64,000 bases of DNA from Paenibacillus woosongensis (lineage in GTDB: Bacteria > Bacillota > Bacilli > Paenibacillales > Paenibacillaceae). Below, in pieces: positions 4,701 to 51,283 of this stretch (position 1 is its first letter; each line of letters begins with the position of its first letter). The notes under the pieces were generated by a model. That model was not told where the DNA came from. It was given only the letters and a program-made list of their open reading frames with translations, and ran no database searches. The stretch lies in contig NZ_WNZW01000001.1 in assembly GCF_009725165.1 (NCBI RefSeq), forward strand, positions 1,240,001 through 1,304,000. Direction: 5' to 3'. A program made the position numbers and the translations under genes.

Positions 4701-7700
4701 GCCACGTCGCTCCTAACCGCACATCAATCTCGGAAGCATCCAAATCTTTCGGCTGCACCGCTTCTAATGCTTTGACATTTTCGCCGTACCGCTCTGCATC
4801 CATTTCGGCGGCACGCCGTGCAATCAGAAGTTTGTCACGAACGTTGCCAGACAAATAAGCATCCGCCGTTTCAAAAACCGGCTGTCCTTTCTCATCCAGT
4901 CTTTCCGGGTTGGGGAAGATCACGCCGCGCAACTCCTGAACAAGCTGTTCCGTTGTCATGTCGGTCAATTCTTGCATATAGGGGAGATCGACACGTGCTT
5001 TTTCTCCAATGGAGACGCCCAGCGCTTCCTCTGCCGTTTCCACATGCCGAACGGTCGTGCGCTGCCGAATCGTACGCTTCGTGAACATATCGGCTTTGCG
5101 TAGCAGCTTCCCTTCCTCGTCGAGCACTTCCAATGAACAAAGTAAAAAATAGGCGCTATCGTCGGCGAATGCCAGGCTGTTGGCGCGGCTGTTGATCAGA
5201 CCGTATTGGGCGGTAAAACGATCATACTGCGCATTCAATTTCCGCTGCTGTTCCCGGATCTCTTCGTCGCTATAATCTTCCGTCTGGTATTCGATCAGTT
5301 CGCGCACCGTATCCCGCAATCGGATCATACCTTTGATTCGCCCGGCGGCCGTGGCCGACGTGTCCACTCGGTGCATCCGGCTGTTTTCGCGGTAATACAG
5401 TTGGCCGTCCACAAGGGTATAACTGAAATTGCGCACGGTCGGATCGGCCGGGAGGGACGTGTCTTCTTCATCCGGCATTACTTCCCTCTCAACCTCCACC
5501 CAATCGGCATGGATATTGGTCAGTGCTTCTCCCAGCAGTTCGCTTAAATTAGCATCCGGGTACGGGTTGCAAGTCGTCTCCTGTCTATTGCCATACATCC
5601 GGTCATCAAACGCCATCGTCCCAAGCACCATGTCAGGATGCGCAGCAAAGTACGCATTGATCGGCACGCCTTCGGCTGTCTCTGCCAAGCCAATCCATTC
5701 CACACTTTGTTCGGTGACAGTCACCATTCGGTCGCGCTTTTGCAGAAACAAAATATCCGCCGTCACTTCCGTTCCGGCGTTGGACTGAAAAGCGTTGTTC
5801 GGCAAACGAACCGCACCCAGCAATTCTGCCCGTTCCGCAATATACTTGCGGACAGCCGGGTTCTGTTTATCCATCGTTCCTTTGGACGTAATAAAGGCAA
5901 TAATGCCGCCCGGACGCACTTTGTCCAATGTTTTCGCAAAGAAGTAATCGTGAATGAGAAACTTGTGCTTGTCGTAGCGTTTATCCGCCACACCATACCC
6001 GCCGAAAGGAACATTCCCTATGGCCAAATCAAAAAAACTGTCCGGCAAAGCGGTTTCCTCATACCCGCTGATCGCAATCGTTGCCTGCGGGTAAAGCTGC
6101 TTGGCGATGCGACCTGTGATGCTGTCCAGCTCTACACCAAATAGCTGCGAGTCTTGAAACGACTCCGGAACTAACCCGAAGAAATTGCCGATCCCGCAGG
6201 ACGGCTCTAAAATATTGCCGTTGCGAAAGCCCATCCTTTCCAGGCAACCATAGATTGCTTTAATGACAACTGGAGACGTATAGTGAGCGTTCAGCGTTGA
6301 TGCGCGAGCGGACGCATATTCGTCCGGTTCCAGCAACGATTGCAGTTCGGCATATTCGGCCGTCCATTGCGCGTTCGCTTCGTCAAATACTTGTGGGATT
6401 CCGCCCCATCCGACATAGCGGGCGAGAACGACCTGTTCATCCGCAGTTGCCTGGCGGCCTTCTAGCTCCAATTGTTTGAGCAAGCGAATCGCGGCTACAT
6501 TAAAACCATACTTAACCTTGGCTCCGCCATGCCCTAACTGGTCATCGGTGATACGGTAATTCACCGCAGTCGTTTGCGGTGCAACAGACCGTACATCCTC
6601 GACAGCGGAAGGAGCAGAGGGTGCTTCCTCATTATGCGCCTCATCCGATACTTGTTCGGTTAACTGAAGGGATGCCGAGGCAGACTTCGGCTCATCTCCA
6701 TCCGAAAGCTCCGGCTCTATTTCTTTTCCGGCAGGTTCCTCCGCTTCGGTTTCCACTCCTTGTTCATCAGTTAGCAGATGATCATTAAGCGGATTTTCAC
6801 GCAGGATGCGTTCAAAATCTCGGCGTTCCAGTTCCTTGGTGAAAAGCGGAAAATGAACATCCCGCAGCATCACGTTACCGTTTTCCACCAGCAAAATCTC
6901 ATATTCGTCCGCGCCAAAAAAAACCGTATCGCCGGGCGCATAGGCATAACGCGCCTGCTTCCGCTCCATCGTCTCCGACTGCTGTGAGGAGGACGGATGT
7001 TCTTGTTCCAACCGTTCGCGAGCAGACGCTTCTTCGGCCATCTGCCCGCGGCGCCCCTCCAGTTGCTCGGCAAATGCAGGAAGTCGTTCCGTTTCCAAAC
7101 GATTCAGATAACGTCCCGCCGCCAGCAACTCGCCGATCCGCTTCTGTACCTTCATCCAAGGCAACACCAGCTTTTGCTCTTGATCCGTCATTGAACGTCG
7201 GGTCAACGTGATGCCTTTGCTATCATGATGCTCATAAATATCCGTGCCGATCAGTACAGGGGCGCGCCCGCCCGTGCCATATTCCCGTTTCAAAAATTCG
7301 GCGTTTTCTTTCTCCGATAACGATTGCTGAAAATGGAGAGCAATGCGATATTTACTGTTGGCAAAGCCGCTTCCTTGTTGGAGAATCGCATCGATCACCG
7401 CCTGCGGCCAGACAAAAGCGGAGGCTGTATCCGCCTCCGCCTGTTCCATAAATAAGGTTTGCTGCTGAACCGATGGCTCCGTCTTTCGTGCCGGGTCAAA
7501 TTCGTTAAGTACTATCATACTGTTGATATGGCCGGCGATCACTTCCCAATCGTAAAAACTTTGTGCGGTTGGTTCGGTTGCCGGACCCGTCCAAAGATGG
7601 AGCACATTGCGATACGGTTCATACCCGATGAGAAGGTCTTCGTCCAGCGTAAGCTCGGACTGACCCGGCGCAAACAGGCTACGCACATACAACGCCCGCT

Positions 7701-9036
7701 CCCCTTCATTTTCATGTGCGGCGAAGAAAGCCTCGATTTCCGACTTGCTTTTCAGTAAAGGAGCGGTGCGCAGTAGATCGTTGATGGCATGATGGTCATG
7801 AAAAAACGGAAGACTCCGATCTTCCGTTTTTCGATCATACCATTTTAGTTGTAAATCAGTTCTGTCAGAATGGTCTCCTCCACCTGTTGCTTCAGGCTGT
7901 TCATGTAACCCGTCCAGCCCAGCGGATCGCTCGCTTTGTCCGGGGCCGGGTGCAGACGGAGCAGTTCGTTCATCGTCTGTTCGAGCTGCGTCCGCGCCGA
8001 CCGGTCGATTTCCGTCAGATGCTGGTGCAGTTCGCCCGAGAGCAGCAGGCTGGCGTATGTGCCTTTCTTCTCGGTTTTCAGGTAGTTTTTGCGCAACATC
8101 CCATACTTGCCGATCAGTTGATGATCCTCGGTCAGTGTCAGGTCGGGCAGCAGATAGCCCCCTTGACGGGTGTAAGTCACTTCCATGTTCATCCGTCCTT
8201 TCTGGCAATCGTTTAGCTTCATTTTGTGTCAAGGCCGTTTCTCTTGCAACGGTGCGAACGTCTCTAGCCTGTGAAGTCTGACGTTCTACACGCCGCTGCA
8301 CCCGTATCGTCGATTCGATTTCCCGCAGCATCATCTCCGCGATGTCGCTGATCGCTGCTCCAAGCTGCGAAAGAGCGGGCAGTGTATTGAAATTCCCGAT
8401 GCCTGAAAGATCCTCCCGTCCAATATAGTGAGGGGCGTTCATACCACAGCGGGTTAGTGCCATATAGGCAACGGAATGATACACAATCTGACGGAACAGC
8501 ACTTCCACAGGTTGGCGTTCCAGTTCTTCAAGCAGACTGCCCTCAAGCTCTCGAACAAGCAAATCCACATAATCCGAACTGTTGTCATCCACTGCGTTCC
8601 GGGCTGCGCTCAGCAGCGCATTCGGCCATGCCGCATCCGGTTCCTGCTCGCCAAACGCATTGTTCAACGTTTCCGTAACGACCGCTATATCGCCCGGCTC
8701 CATGCGCCAAAGCGAGACCGGTCGAGGATCTCCGCTTTGCGTGTCCGAGATATCAAACACATGCCGTAACCCAAAATGGTTGCCCCGGTCTTCGATAAGT
8801 GCAATACCTTTCGCCCCGCGTTTGACCCAACGGTTGAGCCGCTTGTTCCAGACGTCGATGGATGCGCAAGCTGTAGCATCGGGCCGCTGTGCATAGATTA
8901 ATAACTGATCTTGAAACGGATACTTGTAGTTCCACGCCGCTGTCGATAAAAAATCCGCCCAACGGTCGGGATGTTCCACAACCGTGCGGGCGGTATGAAC
9001 GGACAAATCAACGATATGCTGTATTTTCGCGGTCAA
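1753..9036 (-). CDS. Giant DNA methylase-SNF2-like helicase protein (2427 residues)
   Basis: A very large protein of a family common on Firmicute mobile elements. The N-terminal part (1-250) resembles ArdC/LtrC-like regions (YPFQDQLLIYAQRPDA). A disordered charged linker (about 280-400) overlaps a TnpV frame. Next come an N6-adenine methylase module with EPSCGIGNFF (near 942, SAM binding) and AIGNVPFGGYG (near 1008, a variant NPPY motif), and the family motif YVGWGGIPQVFD. A helicase core follows: HCVGAGKT (near 1623), LFVDEAD (near 1783), ATGTPISNS (near 1837) and EQRSGRIIRQGN (near 2115). The start is TTG at 9036 after AAAGGAGAAAGG. The role is unproven. DNA modification, anti-restriction and a replication helper have all been suggested for relatives. 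The ORF is unbroken. Confidence 0.88.
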   Translation of the reverse strand: MTAKIQHIVDLSVHTARTVVEHPDRWADFLSTAAWNYKYPFQDQLLIYAQRPDATACASIDVWNKRLNRWVKRGAKGIALIEDRGNHFGLRHVFDISDTQSGDPRPVSLWRMEPGDIAVVTETLNNAFGEQEPDAAWPNALLSAARNAVDDNSSDYVDLLVRELEGSLLEELERQPVEVLFRQIVYHSVAYMALTRCGMNAPHYIGREDLSGIGNFNTLPALSQLGAAISDIAEMMLREIESTIRVQRRVERQTSQARDVRTVARETALTQNEAKRLPERTDEHGSDLHPSRGLSAARPDTDRGSSTDRQVWDVAQKLPENREERHIRQPAALGRTAPASDGNRPVGADAARTDDERTAPSAPGPGQSERSAGLDGLHEQPEATGGGDHSDRTDLQLKWYDRKTEDRSLPFFHDHHAINDLLRTAPLLKSKSEIEAFFAAHENEGERALYVRSLFAPGQSELTLDEDLLIGYEPYRNVLHLWTGPATEPTAQSFYDWEVIAGHINSMIVLNEFDPARKTEPSVQQQTLFMEQAEADTASAFVWPQAVIDAILQQGSGFANSKYRIALHFQQSLSEKENAEFLKREYGTGGRAPVLIGTDIYEHHDSKGITLTRRSMTDQEQKLVLPWMKVQKRIGELLAAGRYLNRLETERLPAFAEQLEGRRGQMAEEASARERLEQEHPSSSQQSETMERKQARYAYAPGDTVFFGADEYEILLVENGNVMLRDVHFPLFTKELERRDFERILRENPLNDHLLTDEQGVETEAEEPAGKEIEPELSDGDEPKSASASLQLTEQVSDEAHNEEAPSAPSAVEDVRSVAPQTTAVNYRITDDQLGHGGAKVKYGFNVAAIRLLKQLELEGRQATADEQVVLARYVGWGGIPQVFDEANAQWTAEYAELQSLLEPDEYASARASTLNAHYTSPVVIKAIYGCLERMGFRNGNILEPSCGIGNFFGLVPESFQDSQLFGVELDSITGRIAKQLYPQATIAISGYEETALPDSFFDLAIGNVPFGGYGVADKRYDKHKFLIHDYFFAKTLDKVRPGGIIAFITSKGTMDKQNPAVRKYIAERAELLGAVRLPNNAFQSNAGTEVTADILFLQKRDRMVTVTEQSVEWIGLAETAEGVPINAYFAAHPDMVLGTMAFDDRMYGNRQETTCNPYPDANLSELLGEALTNIHADWVEVEREVMPDEEDTSLPADPTVRNFSYTLVDGQLYYRENSRMHRVDTSATAAGRIKGMIRLRDTVRELIEYQTEDYSDEEIREQQRKLNAQYDRFTAQYGLINSRANSLAFADDSAYFLLCSLEVLDEEGKLLRKADMFTKRTIRQRTTVRHVETAEEALGVSIGEKARVDLPYMQELTDMTTEQLVQELRGVIFPNPERLDEKGQPVFETADAYLSGNVRDKLLIARRAAEMDAERYGENVKALEAVQPKDLDASEIDVRLGATWLPPEVIREFIFELVDTPYMFRQSIDVLYSEYTAAWNVRGKSNDRSNNIKANVTFGTNRVNAYKILEDTLNLRDVRIFDTVLENGVEKRVLNKQETAIAQQKQEMLKEAFRDWIWKDPQRRERLTRLYNDRFNAIRPREYDGSHIRFTGMNPEIRLRQHQVNAVARALYGGNSLFAHCVGAGKTFAMTAAAMESKHLGLCSKSMFVVPNHLTEQWAAEFLQLYPSANILVATKKDFETKNRKTFCARIATGDYDAIIIGHSQFEKIPISMERQRQQLEEQIYEITSGIRELKEAKGERYAIKQLEKTRKTLQAKLAKLNDTSRKDDVVTFEELGVDRLFVDEADSYKNLFLYTKMRNVAGLSQTEAQKSSDMFAKCRYLDELTGGRGIIFATGTPISNSITEMYTMQRYLQYERLRKQGLQHFDSWASTFGETVTAIELAPEGTGYRAKTRFARFYNLPELMNMFKEVADIQTADMLQLPVPKSHFHNVAVPPSDFQREMVADLAHRAERVRAKEVEPHEDNMLKITNDGRKLALDQRLANPMLPDDEGSKVSVCADNVFRLWKEHEEKRLAQLVFCDLSIPKQDGTFNVYDELRRKLTEKGVPTEEIAYIHDANTEVKKKELFAKVRTGQIRILLGSTFKMGAGTNVQTKLIALHDLDCPWRPRDLEQRSGRIIRQGNENSEVHIFRYVTENTFDAYLYQTLENKQRFISQIMTSKSPVRSAEDIDEAALSYAEVKALATGNPYIKEKMDLDIQVSKLKLLKANHLSQRYALEDRLLKVLPQQVKSTEDRIAGYEQDVALYLRSKSAVPEGTDESKFPGMVIKDFTYTERAAAGAALLEACKGMTSSEPQEAGSYLGFSLWLSFDSFHKEYKATLRGALDHTISLGMDAGGNITRLNNMLADLPAKLEHSRQQLSTLLQQMETAKEQVEAPFEKEQELLTKSARLAELNALLNMDKRENEAVDSVPDEEPEAPERRVVGRGR
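7845..8192 (-). CDS. TnpV-like protein encoded out of frame inside the methylase-helicase gene
   Basis: A 113-115 residue frame on the same strand as the giant gene but in another reading frame. It contains TYTRQGGYLLPDLTL, IGKYGMLRKNYLK, SLLLSGELHQHLTEID and a C-terminal ETILTELIYN, which match the TnpV transposon-protein family as I know it. A good AAAGGACGG box precedes ATG (8192 or 8186). The overlapped part of the giant protein (residues about 281-397) is a low-complexity R/D/E/P/G-rich linker, as expected if TnpV is the constrained frame. Function of TnpV is unknown. Family assignment is from memory of its consensus. Confidence 0.65.
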   Translation of the reverse strand: MNMEVTYTRQGGYLLPDLTLTEDHQLIGKYGMLRKNYLKTEKKGTYASLLLSGELHQHLTEIDRSARTQLEQTMNELLRLHPAPDKASDPLGWTGYMNSLKQQVEETILTELIYN

Positions 9037-43401: not shown

Positions 43402-44160
43402 TTAGGCGACATCACGCTTCTTAAACGTAACAAAGCTGGCCCCGAGAAACAAGAACATGTAAACAGCCAATACGATGAGCGAAAAAGCCATAGTCATCCC
43501 CTCAAATGGCGGCCGGCCATTTGCATATACCGACAAATCGGCATTCGTGAACAGCAGATATTTCACGAACGAATATTTGGACAGCAGGGCAACGACGAGC
43601 CCTTCCAGCATCAGCAGCGTCATGCCGATGCCAATCGTCGCTCCGCTCGACCGGGTTAGCGTCCCGAGCATAAACGCGGCGGTCACATAAATGGCCATGT
43701 ATACAGCATGGTACAGAGTGGCGCTAAGCAGATTGCCGAACCCGGCCATGTCTGAGAAGCCAAACATCACGCTGCCCGTGACCAGGCCGACGATTAGTGC
43801 AAACAGGGTTAGCGATAATGAATACAGCAGCACGATCGCATACTTGGAAGCCAGAATTTTGCTGCGGCTGACCGAACGGATCAACAGCAGCTTGATCGTT
43901 CCGCCGCTGAACTCCTTGGAGACGACGCCCGCCGTGCAGATGATGCTCAGCATCACAAGGAATTGTCCAAGACCATTCTTCGAGATAACCGCCTGCGCAA
44001 ACTGCGGAGCCGTGAGGACGCTTTGCAGCCCGCCCATAAATTGCGTCATATAAGCCAAGAAAATAATGAAGGCTGCTATAATCGCATATGGCACGAAGAA
44101 GCTGCGCTTCTTGAACATTTTGAGCCATTCATTCCACACTAATTTACCAAAGCTACGCAA
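43402..44160 (-). CDS. ABC-2-type permease, first pair of the operon
   Basis: 252 residues with six hydrophobic segments. The N terminus, VWNEWLKMFKKRSFFVPYAI, and the segment VSKEFSGGTIKLLLIRSVSR are common in BcrB/BcrA-class permeases. The gene overlaps the upstream ATP-binding gene by 8 bases. Substrate unknown. Antibiotic or wall-stress export is suggested by the family. Confidence 0.85.
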   Translation of the reverse strand: MRSFGKLVWNEWLKMFKKRSFFVPYAIIAAFIIFLAYMTQFMGGLQSVLTAPQFAQAVISKNGLGQFLVMLSIICTAGVVSKEFSGGTIKLLLIRSVSRSKILASKYAIVLLYSLSLTLFALIVGLVTGSVMFGFSDMAGFGNLLSATLYHAVYMAIYVTAAFMLGTLTRSSGATIGIGMTLLMLEGLVVALLSKYSFVKYLLFTNADLSVYANGRPPFEGMTMAFSLIVLAVYMFLFLGASFVTFKKRDVA

Positions 44161-45103
44161 TGTAATTTCCTCCCGTCCATTTAAGGAATTCGTCTTCCAG
44201 CGATTCCCGGCTCTCTTCCATGCGGTACAGCCCGATCCGCTCCTCGCCCAGCGCCTGTACCATGCGAGGTATATAACATTCCCGAACGGTAACCGCGATT
44301 TCCTTGCTCTCCGGCGCTATTCCTGTGATAATAACTTCCTCCATCCGCTGCAGTCTTTCCTTAGCCCGCACGGCATCATCAACCCGCAGCTTCAGTTTGG
44401 CGTACTCTGTTTCACTTTGATGCTCTTCGAGGCTTCGCACCGTCACGAGCTCGCCTTGCTGGATGACAATGACCCGGCTGCACATCAGCTCCATCTCCGA
44501 CAGCAAATGGCTGGAGACCAGAATCGCGATCCCCTCATCCCGGGCGATTTGCTTCAAATAATCCCGCATTTCCCGAATGCCTGCCGGATCCAGGCCGTTC
44601 GTCGGCTCATCCAGGATAAGGATTGAAGGCCGGTGCAGCAGCGCCTGCGCAATTCCAAGCCGCTGGCGCATGCCGAGCGAGTATGCCTTTACCCTCTTAT
44701 GCAGCGCCTGCTCGAGCCCGACGAGCTTCGCCACTTCCATGATTCGTTCCTCTGTAATGCCCTCCGCCATCCGCTGATACTGCTTCAAATTATCATAGCC
44801 GCTCATATGCCGGTAGAACTCCGGATTCTCTATGATCCCGCCGATATGGGCAATCGCTTCGGTGAAATTCCGGCGAATGCTCTTATCCATGACAAAAATA
44901 TCGCCCTCGCTCATAGAAATTAACCCGACGATCATCCGAATCGTCGTCGTCTTGCCCGCTCCGTTAGGACCCAGCAGCCCGACGATTTCCCCTTTATGAA
45001 TATCGAAGGACAATCGGTTCACGAGCAGCTTGCCTCCGATTTTCTTGCTGACCTGGTTCACCGAAAGCACCGTAGGATATGTCTTTAGTTCGTGTATGCT
45101 CAT
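44153..45103 (-). CDS. ABC transporter ATP-binding protein, first pair (BcrA-like)
   Basis: 316 residues from the ATG at 45103 with a GGGAGTGGG box. Walker A GLLGPNGAGKTTTIRM, signature YSLGMRQRLGIAQALL, Walker B ILILDEPTNGLDPAG and H-loop LVSSHLLSEME are all intact. The C-terminal accessory domain (about 230-316) is typical of BcrA-like exporters. It is the first gene of the operon and is preceded by a promoter inside an 8-bp inverted repeat. Confidence 0.9.
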   Translation of the reverse strand: MSIHELKTYPTVLSVNQVSKKIGGKLLVNRLSFDIHKGEIVGLLGPNGAGKTTTIRMIVGLISMSEGDIFVMDKSIRRNFTEAIAHIGGIIENPEFYRHMSGYDNLKQYQRMAEGITEERIMEVAKLVGLEQALHKRVKAYSLGMRQRLGIAQALLHRPSILILDEPTNGLDPAGIREMRDYLKQIARDEGIAILVSSHLLSEMELMCSRVIVIQQGELVTVRSLEEHQSETEYAKLKLRVDDAVRAKERLQRMEEVIITGIAPESKEIAVTVRECYIPRMVQALGEERIGLYRMEESRESLEDEFLKWTGGNYIA

Positions 45104-45119
45104 AATCCCACTCCCTTGT

Positions 45120-45149
45120 ACTAGTGTTATAGTTGAATAGTACACTAGT
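45120..45149 (-). promoter_or_regulatory. Operator of the GntR/ABC operon
   Basis: ACTAGTGT (45120-45127) and ACACTAGT (45142-45149) are a perfect 8-bp inverted repeat with a 14-base spacer. On the minus strand it covers TATAAC (45126-45131), the likely -10 box, upstream of the ABC operon start. Arms AGTGT/ACACT resemble YtrA-family operators known from Bacillus. Confidence 0.7.
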
Positions 45150-45184
45150 GAATAATTACTGTAAAGCCCTTTTTAATTTTTCAC

Positions 45185-45209
45185 AAAAAAAATACGCCGG
45201 GGAGCGTAT
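45185..45209 (-). terminator. Terminator after the peptide exporter gene
   Basis: On the minus strand ATACGC and GCGTAT pair around TCCCCG and are followed by eight T residues. Confidence 0.85.
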
Positions 45210-45241
45210 CTCTCCAGCGCTAGACTGACAAGAACTGTTTA

Positions 45242-47110
45242 TTATCGAAATTCCCCGCTAAACTCCGCCTTTTCCTCCTGAACATACCACTTGGATTGAG
45301 CCTGAAACATCCTGTGATATTCTCCTTGCAATTGAATCAACTCATTATGGTTACCAGATTCAACAATTTTTCCTTCTTTCATAACAATAATTCGATCAGC
45401 ATTTCGGCAACTGCCTAGACGATGAGAAATAAAAATAGCTGTTTTTCCTTTAGATAGTGTCATGAACTGATCAAATATTGCAGCTTCAGCCAATGGATCT
45501 AGGGCAGCAGTAGGTTCATCCAAAATTACAATTGGAGCGTCACGAAAAAAAGCCCGGCTTATCGCCATCTTTTGCCATTGCCCTAAAGATAACTCCACTC
45601 CTCCTGAAAAATAGGGTCCTAATTGAGTATCGAAACCTAATTTTAAATCCTTAATGAAACCAAGCGCCCCTCCTTTTTCAGCCGCTCGAAATATCATCTC
45701 CTTATCCATCATTTTATCGACTCTCCCAACCCCAATATTTTCCTCCGCACTAAATTGGTATTGAACAAAATCTTGATACAAAACCGTGATATGATTTCGA
45801 AGCTCAGTTAAGTTTATTTGCCGGATATCAATATCATCGATTAATACTTCTCCCTCTGTCGCTGGATATAATCCAAGCAAACATTTTATTAACGTCGTTT
45901 TGCCACTGCCATTCTCACCGACAATTGCTATTTTCTCTCCTTGATTGATATGAAAGCTAACATTTTCTAATGCCTTTACATTCTGTTTAGGATACTTAAA
46001 TGATAGGTTCCTGACTTGAATACCCTTAAATATTTTATTTGGAAAAGAAAACACTCTCCCAGCATGATCCTCCTCTGGTAGTTCCAAAAACGTGAACAAG
46101 GGGTTGGAGAATAAAGAATCTTCGTAAATGGCTCCCATTCTGAAGGCGATATCTTCCAATCCCCGTTGTACAGTGGTTAGTGTCTGGGTCATTGCTACAT
46201 ATGCTCCCATAGTTAACTTCCCTATAGCTCCTAACCAAATAAGTAAAATCATTACTGTTCCTGTTACTAATATTCCAAATGCATCTACAACAAAAACAGA
46301 TACCGATGTTTTCTTTTCCAAATATAATTTTTCATATCCATTTTTCCAAAATAATTTACTCCATCTGTCTATAAAATATTTAGATAGATTAAAACTTCGC
46401 AATTCCTTCGCTGTTAACCTAGAACTCAACAAATCTAGTAAATATCCCGTTTTTCTTTCGACGGGAGTCTGCTCTAACATTTGCCGATATCTTAAATTCC
46501 CCATTGTAATATTCACAATTAGAGAAGGAATAATCAATAACAATACTCCTAATGCAAGCCCCCAATGAACAGCAGCCATTAAAATTAACATACTAAATAA
46601 CATGACCGTATTCTGTAAAATAGAAAATACATTATCAATAAGATTAATCACTCTAACAGAATTCCCTGAAATTCGATAAAAATGATCGTAGTAATCTGAA
46701 CTCTCCATATGAATTAGCGGTATTTTAGATGATTTTTCAGCTATTAGTTGATCAAAATGATATTGGGTTTTAATTCTTAATTTGGATAGAACGTATCGAT
46801 CACATGCTTTAATTCCGGCAGAAGCCATAAATACTAACAACTGTAACCATAATGTGCTAAGAGGATTTAATATATAAGGAGATCCTTTTTCTAGCAGCAA
46901 AGTAATTTGGTTTACCAACTGAAGAGTTAACCATGTCTGCAATACCGGAATAAGAGCCTGAGAGATCCTTAACAAGAGGGTTGTACAGAGTAAGAATGGA
47001 TCGATGGACCAAACAATGAGAAGCATTTTTTTTATGTATTGCACTGTTAACTTATATTTTCTGATTTTATCAGTACCCGTACTTTGTAACTCCTTATCGT
47101 TTAGCATCAT
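45242..47110 (-). CDS. ABC exporter, permease fused to ATPase, no peptidase domain
   Basis: 622 residues. The membrane domain (about 25-330) has about six hydrophobic helices. The ATPase domain has IVGENGSGKTTLIKCLLG (near 400), VELSLGQWQKMAISRAF (signature), PIVILDEPTAALDP (Walker B) and FISHRLGSC (H-loop). It resembles half-size exporters found beside lantibiotic and other small-peptide genes. There is no C39 peptidase domain at the N terminus, so the cargo would not be cut by this protein. The nearest candidate cargo is the 51-residue peptide just upstream. Confidence 0.88.
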   Translation of the reverse strand: MMLNDKELQSTGTDKIRKYKLTVQYIKKMLLIVWSIDPFLLCTTLLLRISQALIPVLQTWLTLQLVNQITLLLEKGSPYILNPLSTLWLQLLVFMASAGIKACDRYVLSKLRIKTQYHFDQLIAEKSSKIPLIHMESSDYYDHFYRISGNSVRVINLIDNVFSILQNTVMLFSMLILMAAVHWGLALGVLLLIIPSLIVNITMGNLRYRQMLEQTPVERKTGYLLDLLSSRLTAKELRSFNLSKYFIDRWSKLFWKNGYEKLYLEKKTSVSVFVVDAFGILVTGTVMILLIWLGAIGKLTMGAYVAMTQTLTTVQRGLEDIAFRMGAIYEDSLFSNPLFTFLELPEEDHAGRVFSFPNKIFKGIQVRNLSFKYPKQNVKALENVSFHINQGEKIAIVGENGSGKTTLIKCLLGLYPATEGEVLIDDIDIRQINLTELRNHITVLYQDFVQYQFSAEENIGVGRVDKMMDKEMIFRAAEKGGALGFIKDLKLGFDTQLGPYFSGGVELSLGQWQKMAISRAFFRDAPIVILDEPTAALDPLAEAAIFDQFMTLSKGKTAIFISHRLGSCRNADRIIVMKEGKIVESGNHNELIQLQGEYHRMFQAQSKWYVQEEKAEFSGEFR

Positions 47111-47144
47111 GAATTAGCCTCTTTCAAATCATAAATTTATAAGG

Positions 47145-47173
47145 CTAAGGATACACATAATGTGTATCCTTAG
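47145..47173 (-). other. 13-bp perfect stem-loop between peptide and exporter genes
   Basis: CTAAGGATACACA and TGTGTATCCTTAG pair without a mismatch around TAA. It begins 13 bases after the peptide stop codon. There is no T tract after it on the minus strand, so it is more likely an mRNA-stabilising or processing hairpin than a simple terminator. That would favour more peptide than exporter. Confidence 0.7.
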
Positions 47174-47185
47174 TTACAAAGAAAA

Positions 47186-47341
47186 TTAGCATTCACATAC
47201 ATACCACGTTCTGGATGTCGTATCGATAATTTGATTATTCGAATTATAAATACGACAGTATTCATTGTATTCTCTGATTTTAATACCGTAAGGACTACAG
47301 ATACTTGAAGTACAAGTTGAAGCAGTATTACAATATGTCAT
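47186..47341 (-). CDS. Six-cysteine small peptide, candidate exported peptide or bacteriocin precursor
   Basis: A 51-residue ORF with a near-perfect AAGGAGGTGATAGCTA box before the ATG. It begins MTYCNTASTCTSSICSPYGI and ends RTWYVCEC. Cysteines are at residues 4, 10, 15, 29, 49 and 51, an even number that could give three disulfides. There is no hydrophobic signal peptide and no double-Gly leader. It sits between a membrane redoxin and an ABC exporter. It could be a leaderless exported toxin, a signal, or an RiPP core, but no modifying enzyme such as a radical-SAM or lanthionine synthase gene is nearby. I know no family matching it. Confidence 0.7.
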   Translation of the reverse strand: MTYCNTASTCTSSICSPYGIKIREYNEYCRIYNSNNQIIDTTSRTWYVCEC

Positions 47342-47376
47342 TAGCTATCACCTCCTTTCTATATTTTTAATAAATT

Positions 47377-48006
47377 CTAGGATGCTTCACGAACCTGTGC
47401 GCCGATTTTAAGAAGTATATCCAGGTCTCTCAATCCATCATTAATGACCCCCTTAGACATAACAATACCTTCAGGAGAAATATAGTAAGCAAAGGGAAAT
47501 TTCCGTGTTCTTGTAATCGTTAAATCTGCTTCAGTCAAGTGATAAATTGGATGTTTGATTTGAAGAATTTTTGCTTTTTGAATAACTTCTTCAGGTGTAG
47601 GCGATTCCATAAATATTGTTAGATCATAGTATGGGTGGCGCTCAGAAAACAATTTTAGACCCTGGTAAACACTCTCACATATTTTGCAATTAACTGACAG
47701 ATAAACTATGATTAGTCCCCTGCTATTTCGTTCAGTCAAATTAATCATTTTACCGGAAACCTCTGTAAATTGAAGTACAGGAAATAACTCCCCCTGTTCT
47801 AATCCATAATCACTTAAAGGCAGAAATAGATCATTAATAACTGGATGCATGTTTGTGTTTGTGTTCGTGTTCATGTTAGTATTATTCACACTCATCGTTA
47901 TGCTTTGTACTTTTTTATACAAGAAGACAATGGCAAAAAGAATACAAATAATACATGTCCACATCGTAAATATTGCAATCACAAGGAAGTTCTCCAATAA
48001 ATTCAC
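47377..48006 (-). CDS. Membrane-anchored thioredoxin-like protein with CxxC (MauD-like)
   Basis: 209 residues starting at GTG (48006) after AAGGGG. A membrane helix (about 8-30) is followed by an Asn/Thr/Met repeat linker, then a redoxin domain with VYLSVNCKICESVYQGLK, the CxxC (Cys 107, 110) of thiol-disulfide oxidoreductases. The segment FPFAYYISPEGIV carries the cis-Pro position. It would face outward and could oxidise or shuffle disulfides. It pairs with the MauE-like gene upstream, four bases apart, as in MauD/MauE. Confidence 0.75.
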   Translation of the reverse strand: MNLLENFLVIAIFTMWTCIICILFAIVFLYKKVQSITMSVNNTNMNTNTNTNMHPVINDLFLPLSDYGLEQGELFPVLQFTEVSGKMINLTERNSRGLIIVYLSVNCKICESVYQGLKLFSERHPYYDLTIFMESPTPEEVIQKAKILQIKHPIYHLTEADLTITRTRKFPFAYYISPEGIVMSKGVINDGLRDLDILLKIGAQVREAS

Positions 48007-48009
48007 CCC

Positions 48010-48531
48010 TTACCCCTTATTTAAGATAACGCTTTCAAACAACTTTATAGTAATATTTATTAAACTGTACAACGTAAGTATTGAAATCGAAACATACAAT
48101 GAACCTAAAATATCCTTCAATGGATAGTTCCATATATTTAATGTAGTACTAGATAAAAGCAGTACTGCCCCGCATAAGGCAAGAGCACAAACTTTTAATA
48201 TCGTTCCCCAACCTAATGATTCACTTGTTACCCCGCCGAAACAATTGCAATCAATTAATTTATGTAAACTCATAGCTCTAACTGCAGCCCACAAAAATGA
48301 CAGTAATAATATGACTAATAATATCAGGGCAAATATCAATAACTCTTTAAACAGAATGCTTATGCCAATAATTAGTTCAATAATGATAACTGTCATCGCT
48401 CCCAATTGTTTGACCATATTTATTGGCTCTAACTGATCTATGGTTTTCTGAAATGAGGTTAAGTTAAAAATTTTTGTAATAGAAGAAACAAACAATAACA
48501 ACGAAATAAAAACTTGAAAATAAATAATCAT
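48010..48531 (-). CDS. MauE/DoxX-family membrane protein
   Basis: 173 residues with four hydrophobic helices (about 4-20, 45-65, 66-85, 107-127, with a weaker one near 140-160). The signature DCNCFGG with Cys 95 and 97 matches the C-x-CFG motif of MauE-like proteins. MauE works with MauD to form disulfides in methylamine dehydrogenase, and similar proteins sit near small Cys-rich proteins elsewhere. Its role here, as electron acceptor for the redoxin, is inferred. It is the first gene of the operon, just after an extended -10 promoter. Confidence 0.72.
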   Translation of the reverse strand: MIIYFQVFISLLLFVSSITKIFNLTSFQKTIDQLEPINMVKQLGAMTVIIIELIIGISILFKELLIFALILLVILLLSFLWAAVRAMSLHKLIDCNCFGGVTSESLGWGTILKVCALALCGAVLLLSSTTLNIWNYPLKDILGSLYVSISILTLYSLINITIKLFESVILNKG

Positions 48532-48595
48532 ATCCCCATTAACCTCCTCCTCTATCTAGTTGTTTCAAATGTCTAAATTCTATATTTTAAGCCAA

Positions 48596-48604
48596 ATTAT
48601 AGCA
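48596..48604 (-). promoter_or_regulatory. Extended -10 promoter of the peptide cassette
   Basis: On the minus strand TGCTATAAT is a TGn-extended, perfect -10 box 65 bases before the MauE-like ATG. No good -35 hexamer is found at 16-18 bases, which is usual for extended -10 promoters. Confidence 0.55.
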
Positions 48605-48670
48605 TGATTACATATTTTCCATATATGCTTTATTCTTCCGATTCTTTGTTGAAAATCTTCGGATGTATCT

Positions 48671-48698
48671 AAAAAAGACTGCCCATATCAGGCAGCCT
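48671..48698 (-). terminator. Terminator after the response regulator gene
   Basis: On the minus strand CTGCC and GGCAG pair around TGATATG, followed by TCTTTTTT. It overlaps the end of the response regulator gene. Confidence 0.8.
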
Positions 48699-49530
48699 AG
48701 GATTTGATTTTCACTTGATCGCGATATTGCTTCGGGGTCATGTTTTCAAACCTTTTGAACATGCGGATAAAATAGCTCGTCGTTTGCAGGCCGATCTGCT
48801 CCGAAATGGCGTCCAGGCTCAGGCTGGAGCCTTCCAGCAGCTCCTTGGCCTTCTTCATGCGAAGCCGGGTGACATAATCGATGAAGGTGACACCGGCTTC
48901 CTCCTTGAATAGCACGCTGAAATAACTTGGATTCAGATGGACCTGCTGAGCCACTTCCTTAATCGTAAGTACGTCGGAAATATGCTCATCGATGTATTGA
49001 ACCGCTTTGATCACATACTCGTTGCTCGTATGCAGACTAAGCGGGTCTTGACTCTGGCTCGTCTGGCCTTGCCGTCCATTTGCCGCACCCGCTTCATTTA
49101 GCTCAAGCTCGCTGAAATGCTGCTGCAGGCGCGCCCTTCGCTCTTTCGCCAGGCGGGCCTTGTTTAGCGCCTTCTCGGCCATCTTGATGAGCTCGGATTG
49201 CTGCACCGGCTTCAGCAGGTAATCGATCGCTCCCAGCCGCAGGCCCTGCTGGGCGTATTCGAATTCCGCGAACCCGGTGAGCAGTACGGCTGCGATCTCG
49301 TTTTTCTCCCTTCGCAGCGCCTCCAGCAGTTCAATACCGGTCATAAGGGGCATGCGAATATCGGTGATGAGCAGATCGTATTCCCGCTCCCGGAGCATGT
49401 TCAGCGCCTGCTGCCCGTTCTCCGCTGCGGCGATGTCGATCTTGCCGTCTCCCCATTGCTGCAGTGTGTAGGACACACCCATTCTCGTGTTGTATTCGTC
49501 ATCAACGACTAGGATCGCCGGTATGCTCAT
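48697..49530 (-). CDS. AraC-type response regulator
   Basis: 277 residues. The receiver domain spans 1-120 with DD at 10-11, phospho-acceptor Asp 57 in DLLITDIRMP and a Lys in DYLLKPVQQ. The C-terminal AraC HTH domain (about 170-275) has two helix-turn-helices (TIKEVAQQVHLNPSYFSVLF and DAISEQIGLQTTSYFIRMF). It is shorter than full YesN proteins because the linker is reduced. It overlaps the histidine kinase gene upstream by 29 bases. The pair probably controls the nearby sugar genes. Confidence 0.93.
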   Translation of the reverse strand: MSIPAILVVDDEYNTRMGVSYTLQQWGDGKIDIAAAENGQQALNMLREREYDLLITDIRMPLMTGIELLEALRREKNEIAAVLLTGFAEFEYAQQGLRLGAIDYLLKPVQQSELIKMAEKALNKARLAKERRARLQQHFSELELNEAGAANGRQGQTSQSQDPLSLHTSNEYVIKAVQYIDEHISDVLTIKEVAQQVHLNPSYFSVLFKEEAGVTFIDYVTRLRMKKAKELLEGSSLSLDAISEQIGLQTTSYFIRMFKRFENMTPKQYRDQVKIKS

Positions 49531-51283
49531 CTCGATCCACCTCCTCCTGAGCCTGCTCGGCAGGAATCCTCACCTCAACAACGGTGCCTCCATTTTGCCG
49601 GCTTTCGATGCGAATACCGTAATCGGGGCCGTAATGGAACTGGATCAGCTTGCTGACATTGAACATGCCAATGCCTTTGCCGCTGGACATAAACGCCACA
49701 TTCATATCGTTCTGCAGCCTTTCCCGAACGTCCGCCAGCTCGGCTTCACGCATGCCGACACCGTTATCGGCGATGAGGAACGAGACAATCCCGTCCCGCT
49801 CGCTTACCGTGAGCTCAATGATTCCTCCGCTTTCCAGCGGTTCAATGCCATGAACAATCGCATTCTCAATCAGCGGCTGAATCGTCAGCTTCGGAATTTT
49901 CAGCCCATGCACGGCCGGGTCGTCATGAATGTGGACCTGCAGCCGTTCATGCCAGCGCATCTTCATTATATAGACGTAGCGCCTGACCTGCTCCAGCTCC
50001 TCGGCTACAGTAACGAAGCCGTCCTCCCCGCTCGATTGAATACTGTAGCGGAACATATCGGCAAGCCGGATGACCATTTGGGCCAACTCGTCATCCCCTT
50101 TGCGGATATGGGCCCAGTATAGCGAATCCAGCGTATTGAACAGGAAATGCGGGTGAATTTGCGAATGCAGCGCTCTGATTTCGCTTTTGCTTTTGATCAG
50201 CTCTTTTTCATAAACCGACTTGATTAAATGGTTGATCTCCCGAACCATTTGATTATATTTCACGTTCAGCAGATTAACCTCACGATTGAAGTACGTTTCC
50301 GGATTCTCCTGCGGGTTCCCGCCTTTGCCCTTTTGCATCACCCTCGTCAGCCTTTTGATTGGCGACGTAATCAATAAAGACAGGTAATAGGAAAGGACCG
50401 CGAATACGACGATGCTAAGAACGCTGGCCCAGATGAGCACATCCTGCAGAAAATGGATTTCCTCCGTCAGAGCCGTCTTCAGAACCATAATCTCCAGCTG
50501 CCAGTCGGTCGTTTTGATCTTCCGCTGCACAGTGACATACTCCGCCCTGTTGATCGCATCCTCCTCCGGGGAATCGGATGAAGCCACAGCGCCTTCAGTT
50601 CCCGCCAGCGATATCTCGTTGCCATCGGCATCGAGCAGCCGCATGATGCTTCCCCTCGCTTTTGCGACATCCCTGCTGATGAAATCAACGAGGGAGGGCT
50701 TGATGCGAATGACCAAATATCCCCCGTTCTGGTAGTCCAGCTTCTCTACCTTGACCCGCCGGACCGCCAGCAGATCCTCCGGATTCTGGGGATCGCGGCC
50801 AATCCAGATCATCGCGCCAACCTGGTGAGCTTCATTCGCCTCCCGTACGTATCGTTCACCGACCCGGGCGGCAATATTCTGCTCGACAATCGGGTAAAGG
50901 CTGTTCTCCTCAGAGAACAGCTCGATTTCCCGGATCGTCTCCGAATATGCCGTTTTATCGATCAGAATCTTCCGCAGCTGCATTTTTTCGTCATAGGTTG
51001 TGGTTTCGCCCCGCAGTTCATCGGCAAGCTGATCCTGAACCCGCTCATCCATCGCAAGCTGCAGAGTCAGGACATTGATTTCGCTCAGCAGCGATTCCAA
51101 CCGTCCGCTGGCCTGCTCCGCAATCTCGTCAATATAGCGGGAGGCGTTCTCCTTCTGCACCTTCGACAGCAAATAATAGAGGCTGCTGACCGTTAGCGAC
51201 AACACGATAATCATCATGACGATGAATCCGACGAAAATCTGGCCTCTCGTCTTGTCCAAACCCATCTTGCTCAGCAGCCTCAT
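49502..51283 (-). CDS. YesM-family sensor histidine kinase
   Basis: 593 residues. Two membrane helices (about 15-38 and 285-308) flank an outward sensor domain; a HAMP-like region follows. The phospho-acceptor is in HSQIHPHFLFNTLDSLYWA (near 377). LTIQPLIENAIVHGIEP is the N box, and SFLIADNGVGM the G1-like box, of the ATPase domain. This is the LytS/YesM class. The sensor domain has no family name that I can assign. It is paired with the downstream response regulator. Confidence 0.93.
   Translation of the reverse strand: MRLLSKMGLDKTRGQIFVGFIVMMIIVLSLTVSSLYYLLSKVQKENASRYIDEIAEQASGRLESLLSEINVLTLQLAMDERVQDQLADELRGETTTYDEKMQLRKILIDKTAYSETIREIELFSEENSLYPIVEQNIAARVGERYVREANEAHQVGAMIWIGRDPQNPEDLLAVRRVKVEKLDYQNGGYLVIRIKPSLVDFISRDVAKARGSIMRLLDADGNEISLAGTEGAVASSDSPEEDAINRAEYVTVQRKIKTTDWQLEIMVLKTALTEEIHFLQDVLIWASVLSIVVFAVLSYYLSLLITSPIKRLTRVMQKGKGGNPQENPETYFNREVNLLNVKYNQMVREINHLIKSVYEKELIKSKSEIRALHSQIHPHFLFNTLDSLYWAHIRKGDDELAQMVIRLADMFRYSIQSSGEDGFVTVAEELEQVRRYVYIMKMRWHERLQVHIHDDPAVHGLKIPKLTIQPLIENAIVHGIEPLESGGIIELTVSERDGIVSFLIADNGVGMREAELADVRERLQNDMNVAFMSSGKGIGMFNVSKLIQFHYGPDYGIRIESRQNGGTVVEVRIPAEQAQEEVDRDEHTGDPSR

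What the first reader, a model, noticed from the sequence alone, without database searches (positions are those of the whole stretch)
45185..48604. AT-rich four-gene cassette that looks like a disulfide-peptide production and export system
In one transcription unit stand a MauE-like membrane protein, a membrane-anchored CxxC redoxin, a six-cysteine 51-residue peptide and an ABC exporter without peptidase domain. Base composition differs sharply from both flanks. Each part has a known relative, but I do not know this combination with a leaderless Cys-rich peptide. Prediction: the peptide is exported and folded with three disulfides by the redoxin/MauE pair, as a bacteriocin, toxin or signal.
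Basis: partly seen in the sequence, partly recalled or inferred. Interest (0 to 1): 0.85.

Follow-up and report, generated by a model that had tools for sequence, protein, structure and literature searches.

The report
Leaderless disulfide-peptide export cassette family
A four-gene bacterial island probably makes, exports and staples a small cysteine-rich peptide; sister cassettes in related bacteria carry their own different peptides, and one of these is the known antibiotic peptide laterosporulin.

Summary
In detail: MauE, anchored CxxC redoxin, 51-aa six-Cys ORF and C39-less ABC exporter, 34.1% GC against 51.3%. They form a 3.49-kb insertion; a relative with 96% identical flanks has 19 bp there.

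Of 70 loci with redoxin, MauE and exporter, 69 carry a small Cys-rich ORF in the cassette zone (the 70th just outside); without the window and two loci fetched for laterosporulin, 66 of 67. Controls: 1 of 29 redoxin loci without exporter; 5.5% in a Markov null. The 94 peptides kept by hand have 4, 6 or 8 Cys; 74 have a Cys by residue 8. All 47 comparable pairs show pN<pS. The window peptide is identical in a second genome of its species, with two synonymous changes.

The gene of laterosporulin, a purified leaderless disulfide bacteriocin, sits in the same kind of cassette in Brevibacillus laterosporus. The window peptide is not in that family.

Verdict: one member of a broad, seemingly undescribed class. 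Export and oxidation are supported by comparison only; antibacterial action is inferred.

The parts
45221..48709 (.). inserted low-GC island holding the whole cassette (limits to within about 35 bp)
   Evidence: BLAST of the region against G022 (L167): alignments end at window 45220 and resume at 48710 with 19 bp between them in G022; G004 (L168) has 23 bp between 45220 and 48707. GC 34.1% vs 51.3%
48010..48531 (-). MauE-like membrane protein, 173 aa, several hydrophobic segments, CNCFG motif
   Evidence: PF07291 E 9.6e-20; CxC of the motif in 66 of 70 MauE rows; hydropathy
47377..48006 (-). MauD/ResA-like redoxin, 209 aa, one N-terminal membrane anchor, GTG start
   Evidence: weak MauD match, E 5.8e-4, 19.4 bits against a cut-off of 188.6; profile of 19 relatives matches ResA and StoA structures at E 5e-8 to 8e-8; anchor at residues 9-27
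47677..47688 (-). CKIC active site (residues 107-110)
   Evidence: C107 and C110 invariant in 19 of 19; both columns Cys in 72 of 72
47348..47358 (-). strong ribosome-binding site of the peptide gene (aaaggaggtga)
   Evidence: sequence; RBS score 8, the highest of my scale
47186..47341 (-). 51-aa six-cysteine peptide, no leader; Cys spacing 5,4,13,19,1 ending in CxC
   Evidence: 2 of 156 nt differ in G562, both synonymous; CxC ending shared by 37 of 55 distinct six-Cys cargo peptides, this one included
47145..47173 (-). RNA hairpin between peptide and exporter genes, perhaps setting peptide:exporter dosage (inference)
   Evidence: stem predicted at -20.6 kcal/mol for a 71-nt stretch, z -6.1; within these 29 nt only a loop base differs between the two same-species genomes
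45242..47110 (-). ABC exporter (permease plus ATPase, 622 aa) without peptidase domain
   Evidence: ABC_tran 2e-31, no C39 match; best exporter hit 651-894 bits in 66 of the 70 loci and 462-559 in four whose hit is split or partial (L045, L102, L141, L153)

Best explanation
The island is a self-contained production unit for a leaderless disulfide-rich peptide, most likely a bacteriocin. The 51-aa peptide is translated from a strong ribosome-binding site with no leader. The ABC exporter carries the reduced chain across the membrane without cutting it. Outside, the anchored redoxin oxidises the six cysteines through its CxxC to three disulfides, and MauE re-oxidises the redoxin and passes the electrons on, as proposed for the MauE/MauD pair of methylamine dehydrogenase. 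Shown by comparison: coding and constraint of the peptide, co-occurrence of the genes, insertion as a unit, and an experimentally known member of the same architecture (laterosporulin). Inferred: transport, oxidation, disulfide pairing, antibacterial action, and self-protection by the exporter (no immunity gene is seen).
For: 69 of 70 loci (45 of 46 clusters at 70% redoxin identity) carry a small Cys-rich ORF in the zone, against 1 of 29 controls (1 of 10 clusters) and 5.5% of null loci; 66 of 67 without the window and the two loci fetched for laterosporulin. pN<pS in 47 of 47 pairs. Synonymous-only change in the window peptide. Laterosporulin gene followed by redoxin, C39-less exporter, second redoxin and MauE in three genomes and in a named B. 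laterosporus record; paper passages give a purified leaderless peptide with antibacterial activity (PMC3293901) and three disulfides (PMC6510442). Redoxin CxxC 72 of 72; MauE CxC 66 of 70. Cargo Cys type is clustered on the exporter tree: 17 changes against a shuffled mean of 26.2, 0 of 200 as low. Exporterless redoxin loci stand beside a protein with 11-14 Cys in 23 of 29 (no control was run for this count). Clean insertion.
Against: No expression, mass or activity data for this peptide. It is slightly acidic (pI 5.9-6.0). No immunity gene recognised. In the laterosporulin paper's passages DTT did not change that peptide's activity, and its measured mass was 13.5 Da under the calculated one, more than three disulfides explain. 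Laterosporulin's exporter is a deep branch, so the likeness is of architecture, not close kinship. Of the five cargo classes on the exporter tree '6C-other' is not clustered at all and 4C only weakly (500 and 18 of 500 shuffles as low), and the window's nearest exporter (L044, 47% identity) carries a different Cys pattern. In 4 of 70 MauE rows the CxC is incomplete. In 9 of 93 peptides the gene is opposite in strand to the redoxin. The ORF rule was set after I had looked at loci by eye, and the pN/pS pairs were chosen at 60% or more identity and overlap.
Confidence: 0.72

Rival explanations
1. The same machinery makes an extracellular signal, or a peptide acting on eukaryotes, rather than a bacteriocin.
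For: Neutral to acidic peptide and no recognised immunity gene in the window; solute-binding proteins stand near the cassette in some relatives and could be receptors.
Against: The one known member of the architecture is a bacteriocin (PMC3293901 passages). Cargo sequence is highly varied (84 distinct among 94) and arrays of up to six variants occur (L122), which fits antagonism better than a conserved signal. No receptor gene is within the window insert.
Confidence: 0.2
2. The small ORF is a regulatory leader (attenuator) of the exporter gene, not a product.
For: It precedes a strong hairpin and the exporter gene.
Against: In relatives the ORF lies before, after or apart from the exporter and in multiple copies; purifying selection on the amino acids; even Cys numbers; laterosporulin is a purified product.
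Confidence: 0.03
3. The peptide carries other modifications (thioethers, heterocycles), and the redoxin/MauE pair keeps its cysteines reduced or serves an unseen enzyme.
For: Two redoxin loci (L053, L162) look like lanthipeptide loci: ORFs of 1058 and 1079 aa plus leader-bearing Cys-rich precursors (LanM identity judged from size, not scanned). ResA, the closest solved relative, is a reductase (recalled).
Against: The window insert has only four genes and no recognised modifying enzyme. Even Cys counts and the laterosporulin precedent point to disulfides.
Confidence: 0.07
4. Unrelated housekeeping thiol transport (CydDC-like) with a chance ORF.
For: CydD/CydC models match mainly the ATPase part of the exporter.
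Against: Those scores (155.9-179.8 bits) are far below the curated cut-offs (329-435); co-occurrence and selection results.
Confidence: 0.01

Closest known systems
Laterosporulin cassette of Brevibacillus laterosporus (class IId bacteriocin; Pfam PF17861, NCBIfam NF033806)
   Same: Leaderless six-Cys peptide of about 50 aa with neighbouring redoxin, C39-less ABC exporter and MauE; lower GC than its genome (36.6 vs 41 mol% in the paper's passage).
   Different: Window peptide matches neither laterosporulin model; its Cys spacing ends in CxC; one redoxin, not two; exporter distant on the tree; different gene order; a LuxR-type regulator (GerE) stands before laterosporulin but not in the window insert.
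MauE/MauD of methylamine dehydrogenase maturation
   Same: A redoxin/MauE pair linked to a Cys-rich substrate; MauE family by Pfam; a paper passage says MauE is thought to help form disulfides there (PMC7794033).
   Different: No dehydrogenase subunits in the insert; MauD model match is weak and far under its cut-off.
Bactofencin A cluster
   Same: Disulfide bacteriocin cluster with a protein holding a thioredoxin-family domain, hypothesised to help disulfide formation (review PMC7616364, passage).
   Different: That precursor has a leader (recalled; the passage seen was cut there); no MauE is mentioned in the passage seen.
Sublancin and pediocin systems
   Same: Dedicated disulfide helpers with an exporter (recalled, no call).
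   Different: Leader peptides removed by a C39-type exporter; glycosylation in sublancin (recalled).
Classical leaderless bacteriocins (enterocin L50, aureocin, LsbB)
   Same: No leader (recalled; leaderless class described in PMC7616364 passages).
   Different: Cys-poor peptides without redox helpers (recalled).

Membership tests
Laterosporulin family (PF17861 / NF033806) | Match of the peptide to the family model | tested here: not met
   0 families for the window peptide in Pfam (E up to 0.1) and NCBIfam (E up to 1); laterosporulin itself scores 1.8e-41 and 4.4e-34
Leaderless disulfide-peptide cassette of the laterosporulin kind | MauE + CxxC redoxin + C39-less ABC exporter together | tested here: met
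Leaderless disulfide-peptide cassette of the laterosporulin kind | Small Cys-rich ORF with even Cys number in or beside the cassette, first Cys near the start | tested here: met
   6 Cys, first at residue 4
Leaderless disulfide-peptide cassette of the laterosporulin kind | Secreted peptide with disulfides and antibacterial activity | not testable with these tools
   needs mass spectrometry and bioassay
Lanthipeptide / sactipeptide | LanB/C/M or radical SAM enzyme in the cassette | tested here: not met
   only four genes in the insert; none of them matches such an enzyme
Double-glycine-leader bacteriocin | Leader with GG site and C39 peptidase exporter | tested here: not met
   no leader; no C39 match
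Methylamine dehydrogenase (mau) cluster | Dehydrogenase subunits present | tested here: not met
   not among the four genes of the insert
MauE family | PF07291 above curated cut-off | tested here: met
   71.6 bits against 27

The most novel reading that the evidence does not exclude
The MauE-redoxin-exporter trio is a general, leader-independent export-and-oxidative-folding platform for hypervariable disulfide miniproteins, carried by at least one in eight genomes of the window's bacterial family and moved with its cargo as cassettes; laterosporulin is its only characterised product known to me, and the exporter recognises the unfolded Cys-rich chain itself rather than a leader.
Probability: 0.6. 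Interest if true: 0.82.

Novelty: new variant of a known kind. Interest (0 to 1): 0.72.

Why it matters
A review passage seen here says that production and export of leaderless bacteriocins are poorly understood (PMC7616364). This class gives a genetic handle: a four-gene unit, a cassette-free sister genome for comparison, and 84 distinct cargo peptides collected here. Ten of them were scanned against Pfam and NCBIfam, and only laterosporulin reached a family cut-off. The trio can serve as a search key for small peptides that annotation misses (the laterosporulin ORF itself was not annotated in one genome, PMC3293901 passage). It also suggests a testable reason for the failed heterologous expression of laterosporulin reported by two groups (PMC6510442 passage): missing or unsuited redox partners (my inference).

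Tried and rejected
Peptide homologues by sequence: 1 of 146 relatives, the own genome itself (the same-species genome G562 was not in that set); none in plasmids; no family in Pfam, NCBIfam or PHROGs. Redoxin in plasmids: 3 weak records (two Pseudomonas mauD, one Nonomuraea), none of them Bacilli; in phages none. Redoxin scan of named genomes: 30 stretches, none confirmed. Laterosporulin in the first genus tried (of G328): 0 of 26; then 3 of 5 in the genus of G211. Rfam on 44000-49800: none. Promoters: no excess over shuffles. The downstream ABC operon (BcrA-like by eye, not scanned) was considered as immunity and rejected as part of the unit, because it lies at the cassette-free site in G022 and G004. 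Low GC as a general mark of the class: only 49 of 70 are lower than their flanks. A shared fifth gene: the widest neighbour family (24 proteins) occurs in 13 redoxin clusters; two members scanned are solute-binding proteins. The first CxxC count used a plain pattern that could pick a wrong Cys pair; it was redone on an alignment. Structure prediction was not used: its rule admits few of my relatives, and a lone small peptide without alignment folds poorly.

Rows and limits behind the counts. The 101 long loci are the window, 20 regions chosen from the matches (down to E 1.3e-6), 20 chosen, 57 chosen, the same-species and laterosporulin genomes included where noted, L108 and L109 being fetched for their laterosporulin hit (both genomes are also redoxin hits). 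Three hits above about E 4e-21 were not fetched (G683:C8:514926, G684:C1:4462668, G041:C35:152927), nor most weaker ones, so 50 of 381 genomes with a full cassette is a lower bound. The ORF rule was fixed after I had seen loci by eye, not before; it was applied alike to cassettes and controls. My notebook entry calls the count blind; that word is too strong. Five of 99 peptide ORFs were dropped by hand as spurious (L048 8939, L052 4770, L084 8320, L136 3248, L142 4841); each of these loci keeps another peptide, so 69 of 70 does not change. Two loci (L130, L162) had an exporter but no separate MauE hit and were counted apart: 1 of 2 carries a peptide.
Full report
What is there. On the - strand of the window stand, in order of transcription, a MauE-family membrane protein (48010-48531, PF07291 E 9.6e-20), a redoxin with an N-terminal membrane anchor and a CKIC site (47377-48006), a 51-aa ORF with six cysteines behind a strong ribosome-binding site (47186-47341), a 29-nt palindrome whose surroundings fold at z -6.1 (47145-47173), and a 622-aa ABC exporter without peptidase domain (45242-47110). 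The genome has this redoxin once. GC is 34.1% in the island and 51.3% in the rest of the window.

It is an insertion. The flanking genes are an ABC operon on one side and a regulator plus histidine kinase on the other (BcrA-like and AraC-type by eye, not scanned). In G022, whose flanks are 96% identical, the alignments end at window 45220 and resume at 48710 with 19 bp between them; in G004 (81%) 23 bp; in G011 the same slot holds another, 5.6-kb insert with other ABC genes. So the four genes arrived as a unit, the slot is reused, and the neighbouring ABC operon is not part of the system.

The small ORF is a gene. A second genome of the species (G562) holds the whole cassette at 95.3% DNA identity over 4.8 kb; the peptide gene differs at 2 of 156 positions, both synonymous. 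In the palindrome only a loop base changed.

I gathered loci by redoxin similarity: a single-protein search of 146 relatives, then a 19-row profile over 398 genomes of the class and 381 of the family. The 101 long loci examined include the window and two loci fetched for their laterosporulin hit. Seventy have redoxin, MauE and exporter within a few kb. One rule (25-80 aa, at least 4 Cys and 7% Cys, RBS score 5 or more, not overlapping large ORFs), set after I had looked at loci by eye, finds an ORF within the cassette plus or minus 1.5 kb in 69 of 70; L150, the miss, has one about 150 bp outside. Without the window and the two laterosporulin loci it is 66 of 67. The rule fires in 1 of 29 redoxin loci without exporter (1 ORF in 29.7 kb of non-coding sequence), and 5 times in 175.8 kb away from the 70 cassettes (one of the five is the L150 peptide), against 97 times in 108.5 kb inside the zones. 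A first-order Markov null gives 77 of 1400 locus equivalents (5.5%) and 0.037 ORFs per kb, about four chance ORFs in 108.5 kb, in line with the five I dropped by hand. Collapsed at 70% redoxin identity the count is 45 of 46 clusters against 1 of 10. In the family search 50 of 381 genomes carry at least one full cassette, a lower bound.

What the peptides look like. 97 ORFs from the 70 zones, one from L130 and the one of L150 make 99; after dropping 5 as spurious, 94 peptides (84 distinct, 31-76 aa) have 6 (62), 4 (17) or 8 (15) cysteines and no other number; before dropping, 98 of 99 are even. The first Cys is at residue 8 or earlier in 74 of 94, which leaves no room for a leader; others (for example L099, L102, L103, L085) have 15-24 residues before it. 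Of 55 distinct six-Cys peptides 37 end in CxC; the window peptide (spacing 5,4,13,19,1) fits the common pattern C-x5/6-C-x4-C-...-C-...-C-x-C. In 47 of 47 same-length pairs at 60% or more identity pN is below pS (pooled ratio 0.24; pairs overlap and were chosen by identity). Arrays of two to six copies occur (L122, L118, L126).

The machinery. Both active-site cysteines are present in 72 of 72 redoxins, and the MauE CxC in 66 of 70. The redoxin profile matches ResA and StoA structures. On an exporter tree of 46 loci (near-copies collapsed) cargo Cys type is clustered: 17 changes against a shuffled mean of 26.2, 0 of 200 shuffles as low; by class, 6C-CxC, 8C and 6C-CC cluster, 4C weakly, 6C-other not at all, and the window's nearest exporter (L044) carries another Cys pattern. 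Of the 29 redoxin loci without exporter, 23 stand beside a protein of 131-158 aa with 11-14 Cys (12 in 19 of them) (no control count). So this redoxin group tends to stand with Cys-rich partners in both settings.

A known member. A laterosporulin homologue printed in PMC6510442 hits 3 of 5 genomes of one genus. In G277 the ORF is 50 aa, aligns with PDB 4ozk over all 49 residues, and matches PF17861 and NF033806. In all three genomes the gene is followed by a redoxin, a C39-less ABC exporter, a second redoxin and MauE (Pfam run on G277's copies only). The named record L172, Brevibacillus laterosporus MSSRFCCT15, holds the same five genes in order; it is the contig of G211. [quoted passage not shown] its table was not seen). 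They also report that DTT did not change the activity and that the mass was 13.5 Da below the calculated one. Passages of PMC6510442 state three disulfides from structural studies and that two groups failed to express the cluster in other hosts. So the architecture has one experimentally known product.

Mechanism, step by step. Shown by comparison: the peptide is a constrained gene; the four genes are a unit; the trio co-occurs with such peptides. Inferred from families: ABC export without cleavage; oxidation outside by the redoxin; re-oxidation of the redoxin by MauE. Inferred by analogy with laterosporulin: three disulfides, antibacterial action. Open: immunity, target, regulation.

Known or new. 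I found no description of the class in seven full-text searches of the open library (several listings were capped, for instance 25 of 12,188 and 8 of 1,107); subscription papers and preprints are not covered. The nearest statement seen is in PMC7794033 (passage): three Streptomyces candidate RiPP families with mauE, one of them also with mauD. Ten cargo peptides scanned against Pfam and NCBIfam give one family above cut-off, laterosporulin. I therefore call it a new variant of a known kind: it works like laterosporulin's cassette, but its peptide fails the laterosporulin membership test.

Noticed in passing
L149 6295-6762, L166 6094-6564, L091 6055-6483 and 20 more of the 29 exporterless loci: A second, exporterless set of redoxin loci stands beside a protein of 131-158 aa with 11-14 Cys; the L149 one has no Pfam match, and its neighbour at 7335-7874 has a CGCFG motif like MauE. 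It recalls the methylamine dehydrogenase light chain in Cys number only (recalled).
   Followed up: partly
L053 6345-12222; L162 874-7102: A redoxin of this group (with MauE in L053) sits in lanthipeptide-like loci with a LanM-sized ORF and a leader-bearing Cys-rich precursor, suggesting that the redox module may also serve other peptide classes.
   Followed up: partly
L036 3387-4649, L039 2955-4259, L043 7968-9257, L150 4841-6184: Solute-binding proteins (PF01547) stand near the cassette; the widest neighbour family, to which the L036 and L039 ones belong, occurs in 13 redoxin clusters. Possible immunity or receptor protein, absent from the window insert.
   Followed up: partly
L040 6140-6721 and kin: A gene family of about 190 aa recurs in six clusters beside the 8-Cys cargo group; the L040 member is an ECF sigma factor. 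Another neighbour in L120 (2240-2809) is DUF4303.
   Followed up: partly
L169 2881-8486 (G011): The same chromosomal slot as the window island holds a different 5.6-kb insert with two ABC ATPase genes, so the slot is used repeatedly.
   Followed up: partly
L085 5961-6343: Two tandem 56-aa cargo ORFs with identical protein sequence differ at 11 synonymous sites, a sign of strong amino-acid constraint within one genome.
   Followed up: yes
window 47377-48006: The redoxin linker holds an Asn/Thr/Met repeat, and the gene is 6 nt longer in the second genome of the species; whether the 6 nt lie in the repeat was not checked.
   Followed up: no
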